A stretch of DNA of 37,257 nt from contig JAHFRE010000017.1 of the NCBI GenBank assembly GCA_023258955.1, forward strand, positions 1-37,257, read 5' to 3'. Source of the DNA: Sterolibacterium sp. (GTDB lineage: Bacteria; Pseudomonadota; Gammaproteobacteria; Burkholderiales; Rhodocyclaceae). The notes under the pieces were generated by a model that made no database searches, was not told where the DNA came from, and saw nothing but the letters and a program-made list of their open reading frames with translations. Position numbers and translations under genes: made by a program. Shown one piece after another: positions 1,002-13,989 of this stretch (position 1 is the first letter of the stretch; each line of letters opens with the position of its first letter).

Positions 1002-1082
<81 letters not shown>

Positions 1083-1282: not shown

Positions 1283-1304
1283 TTATGTAACATGACATAC
1301 ATAA
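1283..1304. promoter_or_regulatory. Inverted-repeat operator abutting the RHH gene start
   Basis: Arms TTATGTA (1283-1289) and TACATAA (1298-1304) are a perfect 7-bp inverted repeat around an 8-bp spacer that itself contains CATG. The repeat ends one base before the ATG at 1306, where a ribosome-binding site would normally be. It is well placed for binding by the dimeric ribbon-helix-helix protein encoded immediately downstream (inference). Confidence 0.5.
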
Positions 1305-1305
1305 C

Positions 1306-1494
1306 ATGGCCATTGGTGAGTCCGGTAGAATTGTCTTAGAGGTTGAGCCCGATCTCAAGCGAAAGCTTTACTCCATGCTTGCACTTGAGAACAAGACGCT
1401 AAAGCAGTGGTTTATCTCTATGGCTGAACAGCATATTGACGCACAGCAGCAGCCAAGTCTTTTTGGCTCAACTACCGAGAAAAAGGGCCAATGA
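1306..1494 (+). CDS. Small ribbon-helix-helix-like protein, probable autoregulator of the R-M cassette
   Basis: This 62-residue protein begins with a short beta-strand-like stretch (GRIVLEVEPDL) followed by two helices (KRKLYSMLALENKTLKQWFISMAEQHI), the pattern of Arc/CopG/MetJ-type ribbon-helix-helix proteins, which dimerise and bind inverted repeats through the strand. Its stop overlaps the methyltransferase start in an ATGA (1491-1494), so the two are translationally coupled. No clear Shine-Dalgarno precedes the ATG; the space is taken by the inverted repeat at 1283-1304, suggesting autorepression that also controls the methyltransferase. In the cassette it would play the part that C proteins play in many type II R-M systems. 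The fold is assigned from pattern alone; an antitoxin-like role is the main alternative. Confidence 0.7.
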   Translation: MAIGESGRIVLEVEPDLKRKLYSMLALENKTLKQWFISMAEQHIDAQQQPSLFGSTTEKKGQ

Positions 1495-3134
1495 ACTTCA
1501 TAATAAATGAGAGCGAACAGAAGCTTCGTGGCGGGTATTACACCCCGCCCGACTTGGCAACTTATATTTCTCGCTGGACTCTCGGAAAGAACCCACAGCA
1601 CATCCTCGAACCGAGTTGCGGCGATGGGGTCTTTATCCAGGCTGTCCAGGATGCAGGATTTGAGAATGAACTTTCACTGACGGGCTTTGAGCTCCTGCCG
1701 GAAGAAGCAGCAAAAGCTCGGAAGCGCGGTATGAACGAACGGCGCCTTAAGACAAATATTCACGGAGAAGACTTCCTACAGTGGGCTCTAGTACAACTCG
1801 GCAGTGGGAAACAGCTCTTTGACGGAGTTGTCGGAAATCCGCCATTCATTCGCTATCAGTACTTGCCAGGGGATGCCCAGATCAAGGCCGAACAAATTTT
1901 CAAGGTACTTGGCCTTCCCTTCACCAAGCATACAAATGCGTGGGTTCCATTTGTGCTTGCCTCGATTGCACTACTCAAACCCGGTGGTCGCTTAGGAATG
2001 ATTCTCCCGTCGGAGATTGTCCATGTCATGCATGCGCAAGCTCTTCGGACATATCTTGGCACAACTTGCAGTCGGATATTGATTATCGATCCAGAGGAAA
2101 TCTGGTTTGACGGTACGCTACAGGGTGCGGTCATCCTATTTGCGGAAAAGAAGGGAAATGTTAGTGACCATACCGAAGGTCTCGGTATCGTTAAAGTCAA
2201 AGGCCGCGAATTTATCCAAGAGAATTCTGAGGATTTGTTCAATCGAACGCTTCGCATTAACGGGAAAACTGTTGTCGGTAAATGGACACGAGCGCTGCTA
2301 AGTAGCAATGAGCGCGATCTGCTGGACACCTTGTGTGAACGCCCAGATGTTCACCTATTTAATGACATTGCTGAGGTGGACGTCGGCATTGTGACTGGCG
2401 CGAATAAGTTTTTCTTGGTCGACAACGAAACTGTTGAACGCTATAAGCTGCACGCATTTGCGCACCCCATGTTCGGAAGAAGTGAGCATTGCCCTGGCAT
2501 TATCTACGATGAAGGGCAGCACCTCGCAAATGCAGAGAAGGGTAATCCGACAAACTTCATTTGGTTTAAGGATGCTGTCAACAAGCCATCTAAAAGCGTG
2601 CGGGAATATATCGAGTGGGGAGAGCAGCAGGAACTCCACACGCGATATAAATGCAGAATTAGAAAACCTTGGTACAGCGTCCCCTCTGTCTACAGCACGG
2701 AAATAGGAATGCTCAAGCGGTCACACGATGTTCCAAGGCTCATTCACAATAAGATCGATGCCCTAACAACTGATACAGCATATCGAATCAGTTCGACGAA
2801 ATTCAGCCCGGAAATGCTTATTTATTGTTTCATGAATTCACTGACAGCCTTGAGCGCTGAACTTGAGGGGCGTCACTATGGCGGCGGAGTGCTTGAACTC
2901 GTGCCATCAGAGATCGAAAAACTATTGTTACCCATACCAGGGAAAATCCGACCAGATTTACGCACGTTAGATTCACTAGTAAGGCAGTCAAATGCCGAGA
3001 CAGTTTTAGAACGCCAAAATGCCGTCATTTTGGGTGCGCTTGGGCTATCGAAGGCGAAGCAAAGTGACCTACTATCTGCGTGGTTGCGTTTGAAGAACCG
3101 TCGCCAGCGCATCAGCAGCGATGGAGATACCTAG
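1491..3134 (+). CDS. N6-adenine DNA methyltransferase, TaqI/Eco57I-like (gamma class)
   Basis: The protein has 547 residues. Motif order is that of gamma-class amino-methyltransferases: GGYYTPP (14-20, motif X), LEPSCGDG (39-46, motif I, AdoMet binding), the acidic FE pair (66-67, motif II), and NPPF (116-119, catalytic motif IV). The region after about residue 290 (with VGIVTGANKFFLV) resembles the target-recognition domain of M.TaqI-like enzymes. It would methylate adenine in a specific site, protecting DNA from the nuclease encoded tail to tail with it. The start overlaps the stop of the RHH gene by four bases and is preceded by an A/G-rich Shine-Dalgarno region (AAAAAGGG). The TAG stop lies in the CTAG shared with the nuclease gene. 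Recognition sequence cannot be read. Base composition is clearly more A+T-rich than the host genes, a sign of transfer. Confidence 0.92.
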   Translation: MNFIINESEQKLRGGYYTPPDLATYISRWTLGKNPQHILEPSCGDGVFIQAVQDAGFENELSLTGFELLPEEAAKARKRGMNERRLKTNIHGEDFLQWALVQLGSGKQLFDGVVGNPPFIRYQYLPGDAQIKAEQIFKVLGLPFTKHTNAWVPFVLASIALLKPGGRLGMILPSEIVHVMHAQALRTYLGTTCSRILIIDPEEIWFDGTLQGAVILFAEKKGNVSDHTEGLGIVKVKGREFIQENSEDLFNRTLRINGKTVVGKWTRALLSSNERDLLDTLCERPDVHLFNDIAEVDVGIVTGANKFFLVDNETVERYKLHAFAHPMFGRSEHCPGIIYDEGQHLANAEKGNPTNFIWFKDAVNKPSKSVREYIEWGEQQELHTRYKCRIRKPWYSVPSVYSTEIGMLKRSHDVPRLIHNKIDALTTDTAYRISSTKFSPEMLIYCFMNSLTALSAELEGRHYGGGVLELVPSEIEKLLLPIPGKIRPDLRTLDSLVRQSNAETVLERQNAVILGALGLSKAKQSDLLSAWLRLKNRRQRISSDGDT

Positions 3135-4315
3135 TCGATCTCAATCATAAACTCGGGCGGGGTCGTGTCCTTACGGTAAAGATAAAGTCCTCGACCGAGC
3201 AAGTCATTCTTAGCGATCAGTGGCTTCGCATCTCCCCAATGAACCTGCGTCATGAAGTTACTTTGCTTGTACGTTGCAGATGATGTGTCGGTCTTGTGTG
3301 AAAGCTGCAATTTAAACTGACCATAACTAACATTTTTGATAACAAGTTCAAATGTTGCAACGGCACGCAGTGTCTTTGATCCAGGTGCGTCTGCCTTCCA
3401 CGTAAGGTCGGGGAATACCTCGTCATAGAAGTAATGCCTCTGGTCGATATGGTCGTACAAGCCCTTTTTCAGCCCCATTGAACCTGTTGGGGCCGTGTTT
3501 GCGCCAGTCGGAATACACAAATCACGTTCGCTGAGAGGCTTACTTTTCCAAACCAAGTATTTCAAACCCGTAGCTGCTGGAGTAGGTACATGCGGGACCG
3601 TCGCTGAGGTTGCCTTTACCGGTGCGGCAAGTTTTATGGGTTTGCCTTTTGCTTTTCCGGAATGAGGCGGAAGCACCTTATTTAGCTTCATTGGCGATAG
3701 ATCGTCGCTTTCCCCCTTCTTAACGTGACTGCCTGTGGCCGGAGCGACAATTACGTCTTCATCAGCAAGCCGCCCCTCATCAAAAAGTTTCTGCGCGTGC
3801 TTCTCGTTCTTGATTTTGAACACGTGATCTGGATGGGACGCTTGCATCGTATCGAATGCACTGACCACGCTATCGACGAATTCCTTATCCGCTTTGTTCC
3901 CGGCCAAATCCAACGCCATACGAGTGCTGACCTCAATGTTGTTGTGAAGGCCGCCAAATGTCATATTTGCGCTACCAATAATGGCGATCGCATCTGTCGC
4001 GTTAGCAGCCAGATATAGCTTCGGATGAAAGATGGTCATCCGGGAACCTGTGTCTACAGCAAACAGGTCGAGCTTAAGTGCCAGGAGTTGCTTGATCGCC
4101 TGAATTGACGTTATGTTGTTCCTGATTCCGACAAAGCATTTCGTCTTTGTAGCAAGCGGCTTTAGGCAGTCTTGGATTGAGTCCAAGCCCTTTGTTCTTG
4201 CAAAGGCTACGCTGACGAGAACTTGTGCGGCCATTGGAAGTTGAAGCAGCGCCCGAACCGATTCGGCGTGGTTAGCCTTTGTTACCGCTTGTAGGATGAA
4301 ACTTAAGTCGGCCAT
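3131..4315 (-). CDS. PLD-family restriction endonuclease, NgoFVII/BfiI-like
   Basis: The protein has 394 residues. The N-terminal ~165 residues form a phospholipase-D-type nuclease domain with a single HKD motif: H97-x-K99 (IFHPKLYL), then GSAN (114-117) and E128. Enzymes of this type dimerise so that two single motifs build one active site and cut DNA without metal. Residues ~195-245 are a Lys/Pro/Ala-rich linker. The C-terminal ~140 residues (PLSERDLCIPTG, then HWGDAKPL and GRGLYLYR near the end) look like the B3-type DNA-recognition domain of NgoFVII/BfiI relatives; that assignment is less sure. It is convergent with the methyltransferase, and both stop codons lie in one CTAG (3131-3134). 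It has its own promoter with a 12-bp palindrome. No good Shine-Dalgarno precedes the ATG, consistent with low expression. Confidence 0.85.
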   Translation of the reverse strand: MADLSFILQAVTKANHAESVRALLQLPMAAQVLVSVAFARTKGLDSIQDCLKPLATKTKCFVGIRNNITSIQAIKQLLALKLDLFAVDTGSRMTIFHPKLYLAANATDAIAIIGSANMTFGGLHNNIEVSTRMALDLAGNKADKEFVDSVVSAFDTMQASHPDHVFKIKNEKHAQKLFDEGRLADEDVIVAPATGSHVKKGESDDLSPMKLNKVLPPHSGKAKGKPIKLAAPVKATSATVPHVPTPAATGLKYLVWKSKPLSERDLCIPTGANTAPTGSMGLKKGLYDHIDQRHYFYDEVFPDLTWKADAPGSKTLRAVATFELVIKNVSYGQFKLQLSHKTDTSSATYKQSNFMTQVHWGDAKPLIAKNDLLGRGLYLYRKDTTPPEFMIEID

Positions 4316-4333: not shown

Positions 4334-4385
4334 GTCTTATAAGACGGAAGCTGGAGACTATAGCCGCTCGGGTCATTGCGATCAA
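4334..4385 (-). promoter_or_regulatory. Promoter and palindromic operator of the PLD nuclease gene
   Basis: On the minus strand, TTGATC (4385-4380), a 17-bp spacer and TATAGT (4362-4357) form a good promoter with a start expected near 4350. Immediately downstream, at about +5 to +16, is the perfect 12-bp palindrome GTCTTATAAGAC (4334-4345). The nuclease ATG is at 4315. The position suits a repressor that delays nuclease expression. The palindrome does not match the inverted repeat at 1283-1304, so a different regulator, perhaps the XRE protein, may bind it. Confidence 0.6.
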
Positions 4386-4541: not shown

Positions 4542-4838
4542 TTATCGCTTCACTCGGCTCTGGAAAAGTTCGTCAGCTATGGCACCATACTCACTAATTA
4601 AGTCATCCATGCCGCCCTTCATTAGCTGGCTATATTCCGCCTGCTCGTCCTTCGTCAGCGTTCCATTCCCCGCCTTCTTCATGAGCTGCTTTGCGTGCTT
4701 TACCTTTGCATCCACTTCCTTGGTCCGTTCTCTTGCTTCTACCATTGCGGTTGCCTCTTCCATCGTCAATGGAGGCTGATCATTCGCTGATTCTCTGAGT
4801 AGGCGGGCTACCGCTAGTTCCTTCTTACTCTTCGCCAA
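4542..4838 (-). CDS. Hypothetical 98-residue helical protein downstream of XRE regulator
   Basis: The start is chosen as TTG at 4838, because a perfect GGAGGA (4851-4846) lies seven bases upstream; that Shine-Dalgarno is embedded in the last codons of the XRE gene, whose stop ends at 4843. A longer version starting inside the XRE gene is less likely. The protein is rich in charged residues and probably mostly helical (KELAVARLL, then TMEEATAMVEARERTKEVDAK and KDEQAEYSQLMKGGMDDL). No known domain is recognised and it has no membrane segment. It is co-transcribed with the XRE regulator and lies between that gene and the XRE relic at 4425-4520, so it may have arrived by recombination at the XRE 3' end. 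Confidence 0.6.
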   Translation of the reverse strand: MAKSKKELAVARLLRESANDQPPLTMEEATAMVEARERTKEVDAKVKHAKQLMKKAGNGTLTKDEQAEYSQLMKGGMDDLISEYGAIADELFQSRVKR

Positions 4839-4842
4839 AGCG

Positions 4843-5133
4843 TCATCCTCCACGTTGTTGTTGGCGGCGCAGTCTCTTCTTCTTCGCTGTTGGCACCTTC
4901 TCACGTACCCGATCAAACAGCTCAAACATGGTCAGCCCAAGCCCATTGGCAATTACCTCGATGGCATTGATGGTCGGATTCGCTTGCCCTCTCTCAACCC
5001 TGCTCAGGTACGTCTGGTAGAAGCCGCACCGTTCCCCAAACTCGACTTGGCTCTGTCCCGTCTGTAGTCGTAGTTCTCGGATACAGGCACCGAGCTGCTT
5101 TGCGATGGTTGATGGTAGAGGCGCAGATTTCAC
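4843..5133 (-). CDS. XRE-family helix-turn-helix transcriptional regulator
   Basis: The protein has 96 residues and starts with GTG at 5133; no other start is available in frame, and AGGGAG lies just upstream, though very close. The helix-turn-helix spans about residues 10-70: LGACIRELRLQTGQSQVEF, then FYQTYLSRVERGQANPT as the recognition helix, and INAIEVIANGLGL. The FELFDRV segment and a strongly basic tail follow. Proteins of this size act as dimeric repressors of phages, toxin-antitoxin pairs and type II R-M systems (C proteins). It is read divergently from the gene at 5266; the shared region holds a tandem 12-bp repeat that may be its operator. It lies on the same strand as, and upstream of, the PLD nuclease, so control of that gene is plausible but unproven. 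Confidence 0.88.
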   Translation of the reverse strand: MKSAPLPSTIAKQLGACIRELRLQTGQSQVEFGERCGFYQTYLSRVERGQANPTINAIEVIANGLGLTMFELFDRVREKVPTAKKKRLRRQQQRGG

Positions 5134-12408: not shown

Positions 12409-12465
12409 ATGATTACAGTAGACGAATATTTGCAGCAGCAGTATAAGGGAGCCGAATATGCCTGA
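12409..12465 (+). CDS. 18-residue leader peptide translationally coupled to the integrase
   Basis: ATG at 12409 follows an excellent Shine-Dalgarno (GGAGGA, 12398-12403, five-base spacing). The peptide is MITVDEYLQQQYKGAEYA. Its TGA at 12463-12465 overlaps the integrase ATG at 12458 by eight bases, and the integrase Shine-Dalgarno (AAGGGAG, 12445-12451) lies within it. It is either a control peptide that sets integrase translation or the stump of a once longer gene; it is too short to be an ordinary excisionase. Confidence 0.5.
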   Translation: MITVDEYLQQQYKGAEYA

Positions 12466-13696
12466 AAGGGAATTTACACCGGCCTTTATGGCAACAGGCC
12501 TGATCTGCCCTCCTGACAGCAAGCACATCGAGTACGGCGTTATGGGCGAGTCGCGGCTGTTCGCCGATTGCCGATCAGCTCCTAACTCGGTGCCAATGTG
12601 GAAAGTGCGCCTGGACAATGCGCAGGGTACCAATACATACAAGACTCTCGGCACCATAAAGGAACTGACGTTGGCGCAGGCACGAAAGCAAGCCCAACTA
12701 TTGAAGGCGGAAAATGCGATCGCCAAGCAAGCATGGAAGCAGAAGCCTCCTCAGGCTGAGATGACTCTGGATACGTTTATGGAGATTCACGCGTTGCCGC
12801 ACCTGCGCATGGTCAAACGATCGTTTGTCCGCGACGAGCAGCTCTATCGCCGTATTGCACCAAAGTTTGGCAGCTTGCACCTGAAGTCTATTACCCGTTA
12901 CCAGGCGGAACAGTTTAAGAGCGACTTGATGAAGGAGAAAATGAGCCCTGCCTCCGTCGATCACCATTTGAAATTGCTCCGCCACCTATTGAACCTTGCA
13001 GTCCAGTGGGATATGTTGGAAAAGAATCCCCTTAAGGGTTTCCAGTTGCTGAATGTTGACAATCAGGTTGAAAACTATCTGAAGGGTGACGATCTGCAGC
13101 GCTTTCTGGAAGTCCTGCGCACCGACGCCAATCGTTCTGTTTGTCTGATCCTGATGTACCTGCTCAGCACTGGTGCCCGGCTGAATGAGGCAGTGCAGGC
13201 CCGTTGGGACCAAATTGATGTGGAAGGAGGTGTGTGGCGTATTCCGGCCGCCAATAGCAAGAGTAAGCGCACAAGGTCTGTGCCGTTGAATGACTCTGCG
13301 CTGTGGGTACTGGAGCAGGCCAAACTGCGAGGTGACTTTGAGTATCCATTCGCCAATCCAGAAACGGGCAAGCCAATGGTGTCTCTGCGTGCTGTGTTCT
13401 ATCGTCTCTGCAAGAAGGCACAGGTAAAGCTACGCATCCACGACTTGCGCCACAGCTTTGCGAGCCTACTCGTTTCGGGTGGCAGGAGCCTTTACGAAGT
13501 GCAGCAGATCCTCGGCCATTCCGACCCAAAGGTGACGATGCGGTATGCCCACCTGTCCACCAAGGCATTGCAGGAGGCAGCAAGCTCGGCATCTGTTATT
13601 GTGCCTAAGACCAAGCAGCAGGAAGTTGCACCCGCTGAGGCAGTACCGGAGCCGAAGCCGACCGCCAACGTCGTCCAGTTTCCGAAGGCAGCATAG
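12458..13696 (+). CDS. Tyrosine recombinase (integrase) of the element
   Basis: The protein has 412 residues; AAGGGAG lies six bases before the ATG. The C-terminal catalytic domain has the complete set: R241 (STGARLNE), the beta-hairpin Lys (K268 or K270), H328-x-x-R331 (HDLRHSF), H354 (GHSDPKVT) and nucleophile Y363 (MRYAHLS). Residues ~100-200 are the core-binding SAM-like domain, and the N-terminal ~95 residues (KTLGTIKELTLAQARKQAQL) resemble arm-binding domains of P4-type integrases. The Pro/Ala tail after 385 is non-conserved. It catalyses insertion into and excision from the tRNA-Phe site. The gene runs toward attR, 244 bp away, rather than sitting beside the rebuilt tRNA. The last 15 bases of that gap include a GACAC/GTGTC inverted repeat (13926-13939) touching attR, a possible recombinase arm. 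No excisionase gene was recognised. Confidence 0.95.
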   Translation: MPEREFTPAFMATGLICPPDSKHIEYGVMGESRLFADCRSAPNSVPMWKVRLDNAQGTNTYKTLGTIKELTLAQARKQAQLLKAENAIAKQAWKQKPPQAEMTLDTFMEIHALPHLRMVKRSFVRDEQLYRRIAPKFGSLHLKSITRYQAEQFKSDLMKEKMSPASVDHHLKLLRHLLNLAVQWDMLEKNPLKGFQLLNVDNQVENYLKGDDLQRFLEVLRTDANRSVCLILMYLLSTGARLNEAVQARWDQIDVEGGVWRIPAANSKSKRTRSVPLNDSALWVLEQAKLRGDFEYPFANPETGKPMVSLRAVFYRLCKKAQVKLRIHDLRHSFASLLVSGGRSLYEVQQILGHSDPKVTMRYAHLSTKALQEAASSASVIVPKTKQQEVAPAEAVPEPKPTANVVQFPKAA

Positions 13697-13940: not shown

Positions 13941-13989
13941 TGAAAATCCGCGTGTCGATGGTTCGAGTCCGTCCCTGGCCACCAAATTC
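13941..13989 (+). repeat. Right attachment site (attR), displaced 3' half of tRNA-Phe
   Basis: This is the 49-bp partner of attL, beginning in the anticodon loop and including CCA (13982-13984). G13967 replaces T1060. There is no 5' half, so it is not a second tRNA gene. It marks the original host 3' end. Confidence 0.92.

What the first reader, a model, noticed from the sequence alone, without database searches (positions are those of the whole stretch)
1306..4315. Three-gene R-M cassette: RHH regulator, TaqI-like adenine methyltransferase, BfiI/NgoFVII-like PLD nuclease
PLD-B3 restriction enzymes are rare. Pairing one with a single gamma-class adenine methyltransferase and a ribbon-helix-helix regulator instead of an XRE C protein is a combination I do not recognise as described. 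It may be a distinct type II-like family carried by integrative elements.
Basis: partly seen in the sequence, partly recalled or inferred. Interest (0 to 1): 0.72.

Follow-up and report, generated by a model that had tools for sequence, protein, structure and literature searches.

The report
PLD-nuclease restriction system with shared regulator
A mobile DNA element carries a restriction-modification defence built from an unusual kind of DNA cutter and a DNA-marking enzyme, and the tiny gene in front of them belongs to a family that also sits, with a very similar DNA switch, in front of several unrelated DNA-marking defence systems.

Summary
The three genes are real and at the stated coordinates; the nuclease gene (3131-4315) is convergent with the other two. 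[quoted passage not shown] The methyltransferase is M.Eco57I family, not specifically TaqI-like. The pair is co-conserved: all 13 full-length nuclease relatives that nuclease searches found sit beside this methyltransferase family, 12 tail-to-tail, in several phyla. The window copy lies in a 12.9-kb tRNA-Phe element with 49-bp direct repeats. The same regulator-methyltransferase module elsewhere pairs with a Type IIG enzyme, so the nuclease is exchangeable. The main new point is the small regulator: its close family heads m6A/PLD-B3, m6A/IIG, phosphorothioation (Ssp), Alw26I-type, Dam-type and m5C systems, with a palindrome ATGTNACAT 21-51 nt upstream in 23 of 27 loci, against 0 of 13 regulator-less methyltransferase and 0 of 16 nuclease upstream regions. 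I read it as an autorepressor of modification operons. Its ribbon-helix-helix fold, the target site and all activities are untested. New variant of a known kind; a second class of R-M controller is the bold reading.

The parts
1306..1494 (+). small RHH-like regulator, 62 aa (MAIGESGRIVLEVEPDLKRKLY...)
   Evidence: fold not confirmed
1283..1304 (.). predicted operator: dyad TTATGT-N10-ACATAA holding the core ATGTAACAT at 1285-1293, 21 nt before the regulator start
   Evidence: sequence; conservation
1491..3134 (+). M.Eco57I-family N6-adenine DNA methyltransferase, 547 aa, with LEPSCGDG (motif I) and NPPF (motif IV)
   Evidence: motif names recalled
3131..4315 (-). PLD-B3 restriction endonuclease, 394 aa: PLD domain 1-188, linker 189-249, B3 domain 250-394; H97, K99, N117, E128
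4357..4385 (-). possible promoter of the nuclease gene (TTGATC-17-TATAGT, 9 of 12); weak, 5 sites found where 4.1 are expected
4843..5133 (-). XRE/HTH gene, 96 aa, same strand as and one gene before the nuclease; possible extra controller
1002..1077 (+). tRNA-Phe, insertion site of the element
1034..1082 (+). left copy of the 49-bp att-like direct repeat
13941..13989 (+). right copy of the direct repeat, 98% identical
12458..13696 (+). tyrosine integrase of the element

Best explanation
A Type II restriction-modification system carried by a 12.9-kb element inserted in tRNA-Phe. The 394-aa protein is the restriction enzyme: its B3 domain binds a specific site and its PLD domain, probably as a dimer with one shared active site and without metal as in BfiI, cuts near that site unless it carries N6-methyladenine. 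The M.Eco57I-family enzyme makes that mark. The small RHH-like protein, encoded in one operon with the methyltransferase, binds the ATGTNACAT palindrome just upstream of its own gene and most likely represses that operon but not the nuclease gene. On entry into a new cell no repressor is present, so the methyltransferase is made in a burst and the host is marked first; later the repressor damps it. Shown here by computation: layout, families, conserved active-site positions, predicted B3 fold, co-conservation, operator conservation, direct repeats. Inferred: cleavage, methylation, target site, repression, timing.
For: 13 of 13 full-length relatives found by nuclease searches have the methyltransferase beside them: 12 tail-to-tail, one (L022) in tandem with an XRE gene between. 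H97, K99, N117, E128 invariant in 14 of 14 rows, aligned to BfiI 105, 107, 125, 136 (that these are BfiI's catalytic residues is recalled). PLD domain against BfiI: Z 21.0, rmsd 2.3, 174 aligned. B3 domain alone, pLDDT 94.1: the 21 best VIA rows, Z 9.5 to 5.8, are plant B3 domains, EcoRII-N, BfiI, UbaLAI, NgoAVII and the LlaJI.R1 N-domain (B3-like by recall); the next row has Z 3.6. Operator core 8 of 10, 5 of 6 and 10 of 11 close-family upstreams; 0 of 13 and 0 of 16 in the two controls. Repeats and integrase.
Against: No activity, target or binding was measured. No significant profile hit for the RHH fold. Foldseek alone is weak for the B3 domain (0 hits at E 0.001 or better; best EcoRII-N 6.5e-3). 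The closest relative L013 and also L023, L080 and L115 lack the exact operator core; five more distant RHH-annotated or RHH-like genes have none. An XRE gene near the nuclease could be a further controller. Two relatives keep the methyltransferase with only a B3 remnant (L081, L082), so the nuclease is sometimes lost.
Confidence: 0.78

Rival explanations
1. The methyltransferase is the selected part (self-methylation of a mobile element) and the PLD-B3 protein is a decaying or inactive partner.
For: L081 and L082 keep the methyltransferase but only a B3 fragment or a B3-only ORF; Sphingobium L008 has a truncated methyltransferase beside an IS1380 element and only a fragment of the nuclease.
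Against: In the window and the aligned relatives the PLD residues are invariant in 14 of 14 rows over several phyla, which drift would not keep; stop-to-stop layout is kept in 12 of 13.
Confidence: 0.1
2. The nuclease is modification-dependent (Type IV-like, as SauUSI) and cuts methylated foreign DNA.
For: SauUSI is the second best PLD match.
Against: It is always found beside a methyltransferase in the 13 relatives, which would then mark the host for cutting; no ATPase domain; B3 in place of SauUSI's SRA domain (PMC12707154 passage).
Confidence: 0.04
3. The small gene is an antitoxin or partition-type RHH protein unrelated to control of the methyltransferase.
For: One of 16 members has a weak ParD hit, E 0.014; some relatives instead have ParG-like genes in front of the methyltransferase.
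Against: No toxin gene next to it; operon with the methyltransferase; in 14 of 14 plasmid records with a relative (9 of them Acinetobacter, not independent) it precedes the same methyltransferase; operator found at its own start only.
Confidence: 0.12
4. The XRE gene at 4843-5133 is the true controller of the nuclease and the small gene is secondary.
For: Same strand, one gene upstream, PADLOC control-protein hit 44 bits; L019 has an XRE gene ending right before the nuclease start.
Against: Among the loci scanned an XRE gene lies directly upstream of the nuclease only in L019; in the window a 127-aa ORF and over 200 bp lie between.
Confidence: 0.2

Closest known systems
BfiI / BmrI (Type IIS PLD-B3 restriction enzymes)
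   Same: N-terminal PLD domain with the same H/K/N/E positions, C-terminal B3 domain, similar size
   Different: B3 domain not detectable by the sequence searches made; long disordered linker; paired with one M.Eco57I-family methyltransferase and the small regulator; target unknown
R.NgoAVII / R.CglI
   Same: PLD plus B3 endonuclease
   Different: Those need an ATPase subunit and have m5C methyltransferases (PMC4267653, passages); no helicase family hit among the 9 window proteins scanned
Eco57I-type (Type IIG/IIC) systems
   Same: Methyltransferase family PF22837; on E. coli, Klebsiella and Acinetobacter plasmids the same small regulator, and tail-to-tail layout in those opened (L005, L006, L010)
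   Different: Restriction partner there is a fused protein of about 1000 aa
XRE C-protein controlled Type II systems
   Same: A small dedicated controller encoded with the system
   Different: Controller is RHH-like, sits with the methyltransferase and is predicted to repress it
SspBCD phosphorothioation systems
   Same: Small regulator of the same family, with the operator core, heads the operon in 3 genomes (L107-L109)
   Different: Sulfur backbone mark and unrelated enzymes
taqIIIRM of Thermus aquaticus
   Same: copG-like gene immediately before a Type IIC/IIG gene (PMC5587805, passages)
   Different: Described there as plasmid copy-number repressor family; no operator or controller family in the passages read

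Membership tests
BfiI-type PLD-B3 restriction endonuclease | Single-HxK PLD domain with BfiI active-site positions | tested here: met
   invariant in 14 of 14 rows
BfiI-type PLD-B3 restriction endonuclease | C-terminal B3 DNA-recognition domain | tested here: met
   predicted model only; Foldseek weak
BfiI-type PLD-B3 restriction endonuclease | Metal-independent site-specific cleavage by a dimer | not testable with these tools
   needs purified protein
NgoFVII family (PF09565) | Pfam gathering score 23.8 | tested here: not met
   window protein 14.6 bits; relative L019 reaches 25.4
NgoAVII/CglI three-gene system | m5C methyltransferase and ATPase/helicase partner | tested here: not met
   methyltransferase is N6 type; no helicase family among 9 window proteins scanned, not every ORF
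M.Eco57I methyltransferase family | PF22837 above cut-off | tested here: met
   342 bits against 27
Eco57I Type IIG system | Fused restriction-methyltransferase partner next to the methyltransferase | tested here: not met
   window partner is PLD-B3
DISARM | DrmC above NCBIfam cut-off 133 | tested here: not met
   13.6 bits
Ribbon-helix-helix (CopG/Arc/MetJ) regulators | RHH fold | tested here: inconclusive
   no RHH_1-type hit in 16 members, one ParD hit E 0.014; hhalign P 0.032 and 0.057 against RHH alignments; no model was made
XRE C-protein controlled R-M | XRE controller acting on the system | tested here: inconclusive
   XRE gene 4843-5133 one gene from the nuclease; action not testable

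The most novel reading that the evidence does not exclude
The small protein defines a second general class of controllers of DNA-modification defence besides XRE C proteins: RHH-like autorepressors of the modification operon, shared by m6A, m5C, mixed and phosphorothioate systems with one conserved operator. Because the operator is shared, a resident system's repressor could silence the methyltransferase of an incoming one, which would give incompatibility between chemically unrelated defence systems.
Probability: 0.6. Interest if true: 0.75.

Novelty: new variant of a known kind. Interest (0 to 1): 0.6.

Why it matters
R-M systems must mark the host before they cut. The known dedicated controllers discussed in the reviews read are XRE C proteins (2025 review PMC12707154, passages: 'ribbon-helix' 0 occurrences; 2013 review PMC3874152, passages: ribbon-helix-helix only for toxin-antitoxin regulators). 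A second controller family that rides in front of unrelated modification enzymes, with a common operator, would explain how nucleases and methyltransferases are exchanged without losing control, and predicts cross-talk between unrelated systems that can be tested with reporters. The PLD-B3 nuclease also gives a family spread over several phyla from which new, possibly metal-free restriction specificities could be taken.

Tried and rejected
Rejected: TaqI-like label (weak hit only). NgoFVII membership (below cut-off). DISARM. B3 domain by sequence: no Pfam hit for the window or Lysinibacillus domain and no B3 stretch in the PDB profile search.

Led nowhere or stayed open: single-sequence scan of genome contigs with the nuclease found no relative, a profile scan found 10. 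No phage record matched the nuclease. Of the 8 plasmid records only 2 are full length; of the six partial ones H3, H4 and H8 were opened, H5-H7 were not. Repeated exchange of PLD and IIG partners: the best methyltransferase tree needs 2 changes, but one single IIG clade is not rejected (p-AU 0.296), so only one exchange is safe. A pure B3 swap between L020 and L083 is not shown: their methyltransferases are alike throughout (60-92% in 40-aa windows), but the PLD part (35%) and the B3 part (31%) both differ. GC content does not mark the right edge of the element. Direct repeats around L021, L015, L082 were not found in the DNA held. RHH fold by profile: not significant. Literature: in the held open-licence library; nine papers seen as passages only. 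REBASE and the original Eco57I paper were not available, so a name already given to this family there cannot be excluded.

Weak points of the operator test: the 11-mer TATGTNACATA was derived from 10 loci and then tested on 5 others (3 exact, 2 with one mismatch; controls 0 of 13 and 0 of 13 at one mismatch or fewer). The shorter core ATGTNACAT was chosen after the other-system loci had been seen (11-mer exact in 3 of 11, one mismatch in 3, two in 5), so the 10 of 11 is not blind. Related loci are not independent. Of the four copies of TATGTNACAT in the 4.4-Mb genome one is the window's (reversed control: 1); the other three were not examined.
Full report
Layout. The window holds a 62-aa ORF (1306-1494, +), a 547-aa methyltransferase (1491-3134, +) and, convergent, a 394-aa PLD protein (3131-4315, -). 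They lie just inside an element: tRNA-Phe at 1002-1077, a 49-bp direct repeat that includes the tRNA 3' part at 1034-1082 and 13941-13989, 98% identical and 12,907 bp apart, and a tyrosine integrase at 12458-13696.

Nuclease. A profile of 14 relatives finds BfiI (E 3e-8), SauUSI (1e-7) and R.NgoAVII (1e-4) in the PDB, through the PLD part only. Positions H97, K99, N117 and E128 are invariant in 14 of 14 rows and align with BfiI 105, 107, 125 and 136 (their catalytic role in BfiI is recalled). The model (pLDDT 79.7, linker 189-249 under 50) matches BfiI over the PLD domain with Z 21.0, rmsd 2.3, 174 aligned. The last 145 residues modelled alone (pLDDT 94.1) give 21 leading VIA rows with Z 9.5 to 5.8: plant B3 domains, EcoRII N-domain (8.5), BfiI (8.2), UbaLAI (6.7), NgoAVII (5.8) and the LlaJI.R1 N-domain (7.7); then Z falls to 3.6. 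Foldseek by itself is weak here (best E 6.5e-3, EcoRII-N).

Co-conservation. Nuclease searches gave 13 full-length relatives: 2 of 8 matching plasmid records, 10 genome contigs, 1 viral contig. All 13 have a methyltransferase of this family beside them (35-70% identity class; L022 36%), 12 tail-to-tail; L022 has tandem genes with an XRE gene between. The 4-nt stop overlap of the window recurs in 7 of the 13 (L003, L004, L013, L014, L015, L017, L018). The small regulator is found by blastp in 7 of 13 (L013, L014, L015, L018, L019, L021, L023); L003, L004 and L017 have a ParG-like gene in front of the methyltransferase. Organism labels cover Acidobacteriota, Pseudomonadota, Myxococcota, Spirochaetota, Balneolota and Bacteroidota.

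Exchange of the nuclease. Searches with the methyltransferase add loci. In the 26-row tree of close methyltransferases 18 have a PLD-B3 partner, 6 a Type IIG enzyme (L005, L006, L007, L089, L090, L091; in L090 about 2.8 kb away) and 2 only a B3 remnant (L081, L082). IIG-paired rows and two PLD-paired rows (L021, L085) form one supported clade (100/100); the best tree needs 2 changes, but a single IIG clade is not rejected (p-AU 0.296). In the 369-genome class draw it is 3 genomes, all with PLD.

The small regulator. Its close family has the signature M-x-x-G-x-SGR-[IV]-V. By its own searches: 14 plasmid records, all 14 also in the methyltransferase list and with it directly downstream by coordinates (9 are Acinetobacter); 7 of 398 genomes, of which 3 head this methyltransferase, 3 head SspB-SspC-SspD phosphorothioation genes and 1 lies before polysaccharide genes (PADLOC scan for L108 only; L107 and L109 by tblastn); 10 viral contigs, of which 3 are PLD systems already seen (L080, and L116 and L119 on the contigs of L085 and L023), 1 ends at the contig end, and 6 head other methyltransferases. 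Those six: L114 and L117 a fused N6/C5 methyltransferase with a convergent ORF that in L114 is RE_Alw26IDE (620 bits; L117 not scanned); L115 two D12 methyltransferases; L118 two m5C methyltransferases and a divergent Vsr gene; L120 an Eco57I/IIG-like protein; L121 N4/N6 methyltransferase domains. A more distant relative (no SGR) precedes DUF499-DUF3780-DUF1156 genes on Pseudomonas-group plasmids (3 of 6 new records opened).

Operator. The core ATGTNACAT occurs within 120 nt upstream of the regulator in 8 of 10 loci of the derivation set, 5 of 6 further loci of the same methyltransferase and 10 of 11 loci of other contexts (one of these 11, L106, is not a modification system); shuffles expect 0.08, 0.04 and 0.05. 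It is absent from 13 of 13 methyltransferase upstreams without this regulator, 16 of 16 nuclease upstreams and 5 of 5 distant RHH genes. The stricter 11-mer was tested on 5 loci not used to derive it: 3 exact, 2 with one mismatch. All 14 exact copies of the 11-mer in 605 kb of held loci lie just upstream of a regulator start; two are the same DNA held twice and two are near-identical plasmids. One copy pointed to an unannotated regulator gene in the Sphingobium plasmid, which is there (L008, 3828-4004). The shorter core was chosen after the other contexts had been seen. In the window the dyad TTATGT-N10-ACATAA spans 1283-1304.

Mechanism. Regulator and methyltransferase overlap and form one operon; the operator lies between promoter region and start codon, which suits repression; no such site lies before the nuclease. 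The simplest reading is autorepression that lets methylation come first. This, the target site and both enzyme activities are inference.

Novelty. PLD-B3 enzymes are known (BfiI, NgoAVII, CglI; PMC4081073 and PMC4267653, passages). The pairing with an M.Eco57I-type methyltransferase and the regulator family were not found in searches of the held library; a copG-like gene before taqIIIRM is in print (PMC5587805, passages). REBASE could not be searched. I rate it a new variant of a known kind, with the controller family as the part of greatest interest.

Noticed in passing
L082:7587-8033, L085:8886-9326, L009:3441-3875: Stand-alone B3 proteins of 144-148 aa without PLD domain beside methyltransferases of this kind; the L082 one is 86% identical to the B3 part of the L083 nuclease, so it may be a remnant or a blocker.
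   Followed up: partly
L083:3353-4504, L087:6824-8059: Nucleases with a second B3 sequence class (GVLRLTQ...GQxNYTT); L083's methyltransferase is close to that of L020 although the nucleases differ throughout.
   Followed up: partly
L114, L115, L117, L118, L120, L121: Viral contigs where the same small regulator heads unrelated methyltransferases, with similar genes around (e.g. in L115, L117, L121): looks like a cargo site for modification systems.
   Followed up: partly
L106 (G240): A member of the regulator family with operator core lies before polysaccharide-export-like genes instead of a modification system.
   Followed up: no
window 4542-5133: XRE gene overlapping a 127-aa ORF of unknown family, between the R-M genes and the rest of the element; could be a separate two-gene module.
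   Followed up: no
L133 (G000:C220): The same genome bin holds a second copy of the window's first 1145 bp with tRNA-Phe (94% identical), followed by different DNA: a second strain, paralogue or another element in the same site.
   Followed up: partly
L008 (Sphingobium plasmid pl6): Unannotated regulator gene at 3828-4004; the methyltransferase is cut short beside an IS1380 element and only a fragment of the nuclease is seen.
   Followed up: partly
L015:571-661, L021:4422-4497, L082:5669-5743: tRNA genes close to the R-M genes in other loci (with an integrase in L021), suggesting repeated carriage at element ends; repeats were not found in the DNA held.
   Followed up: partly
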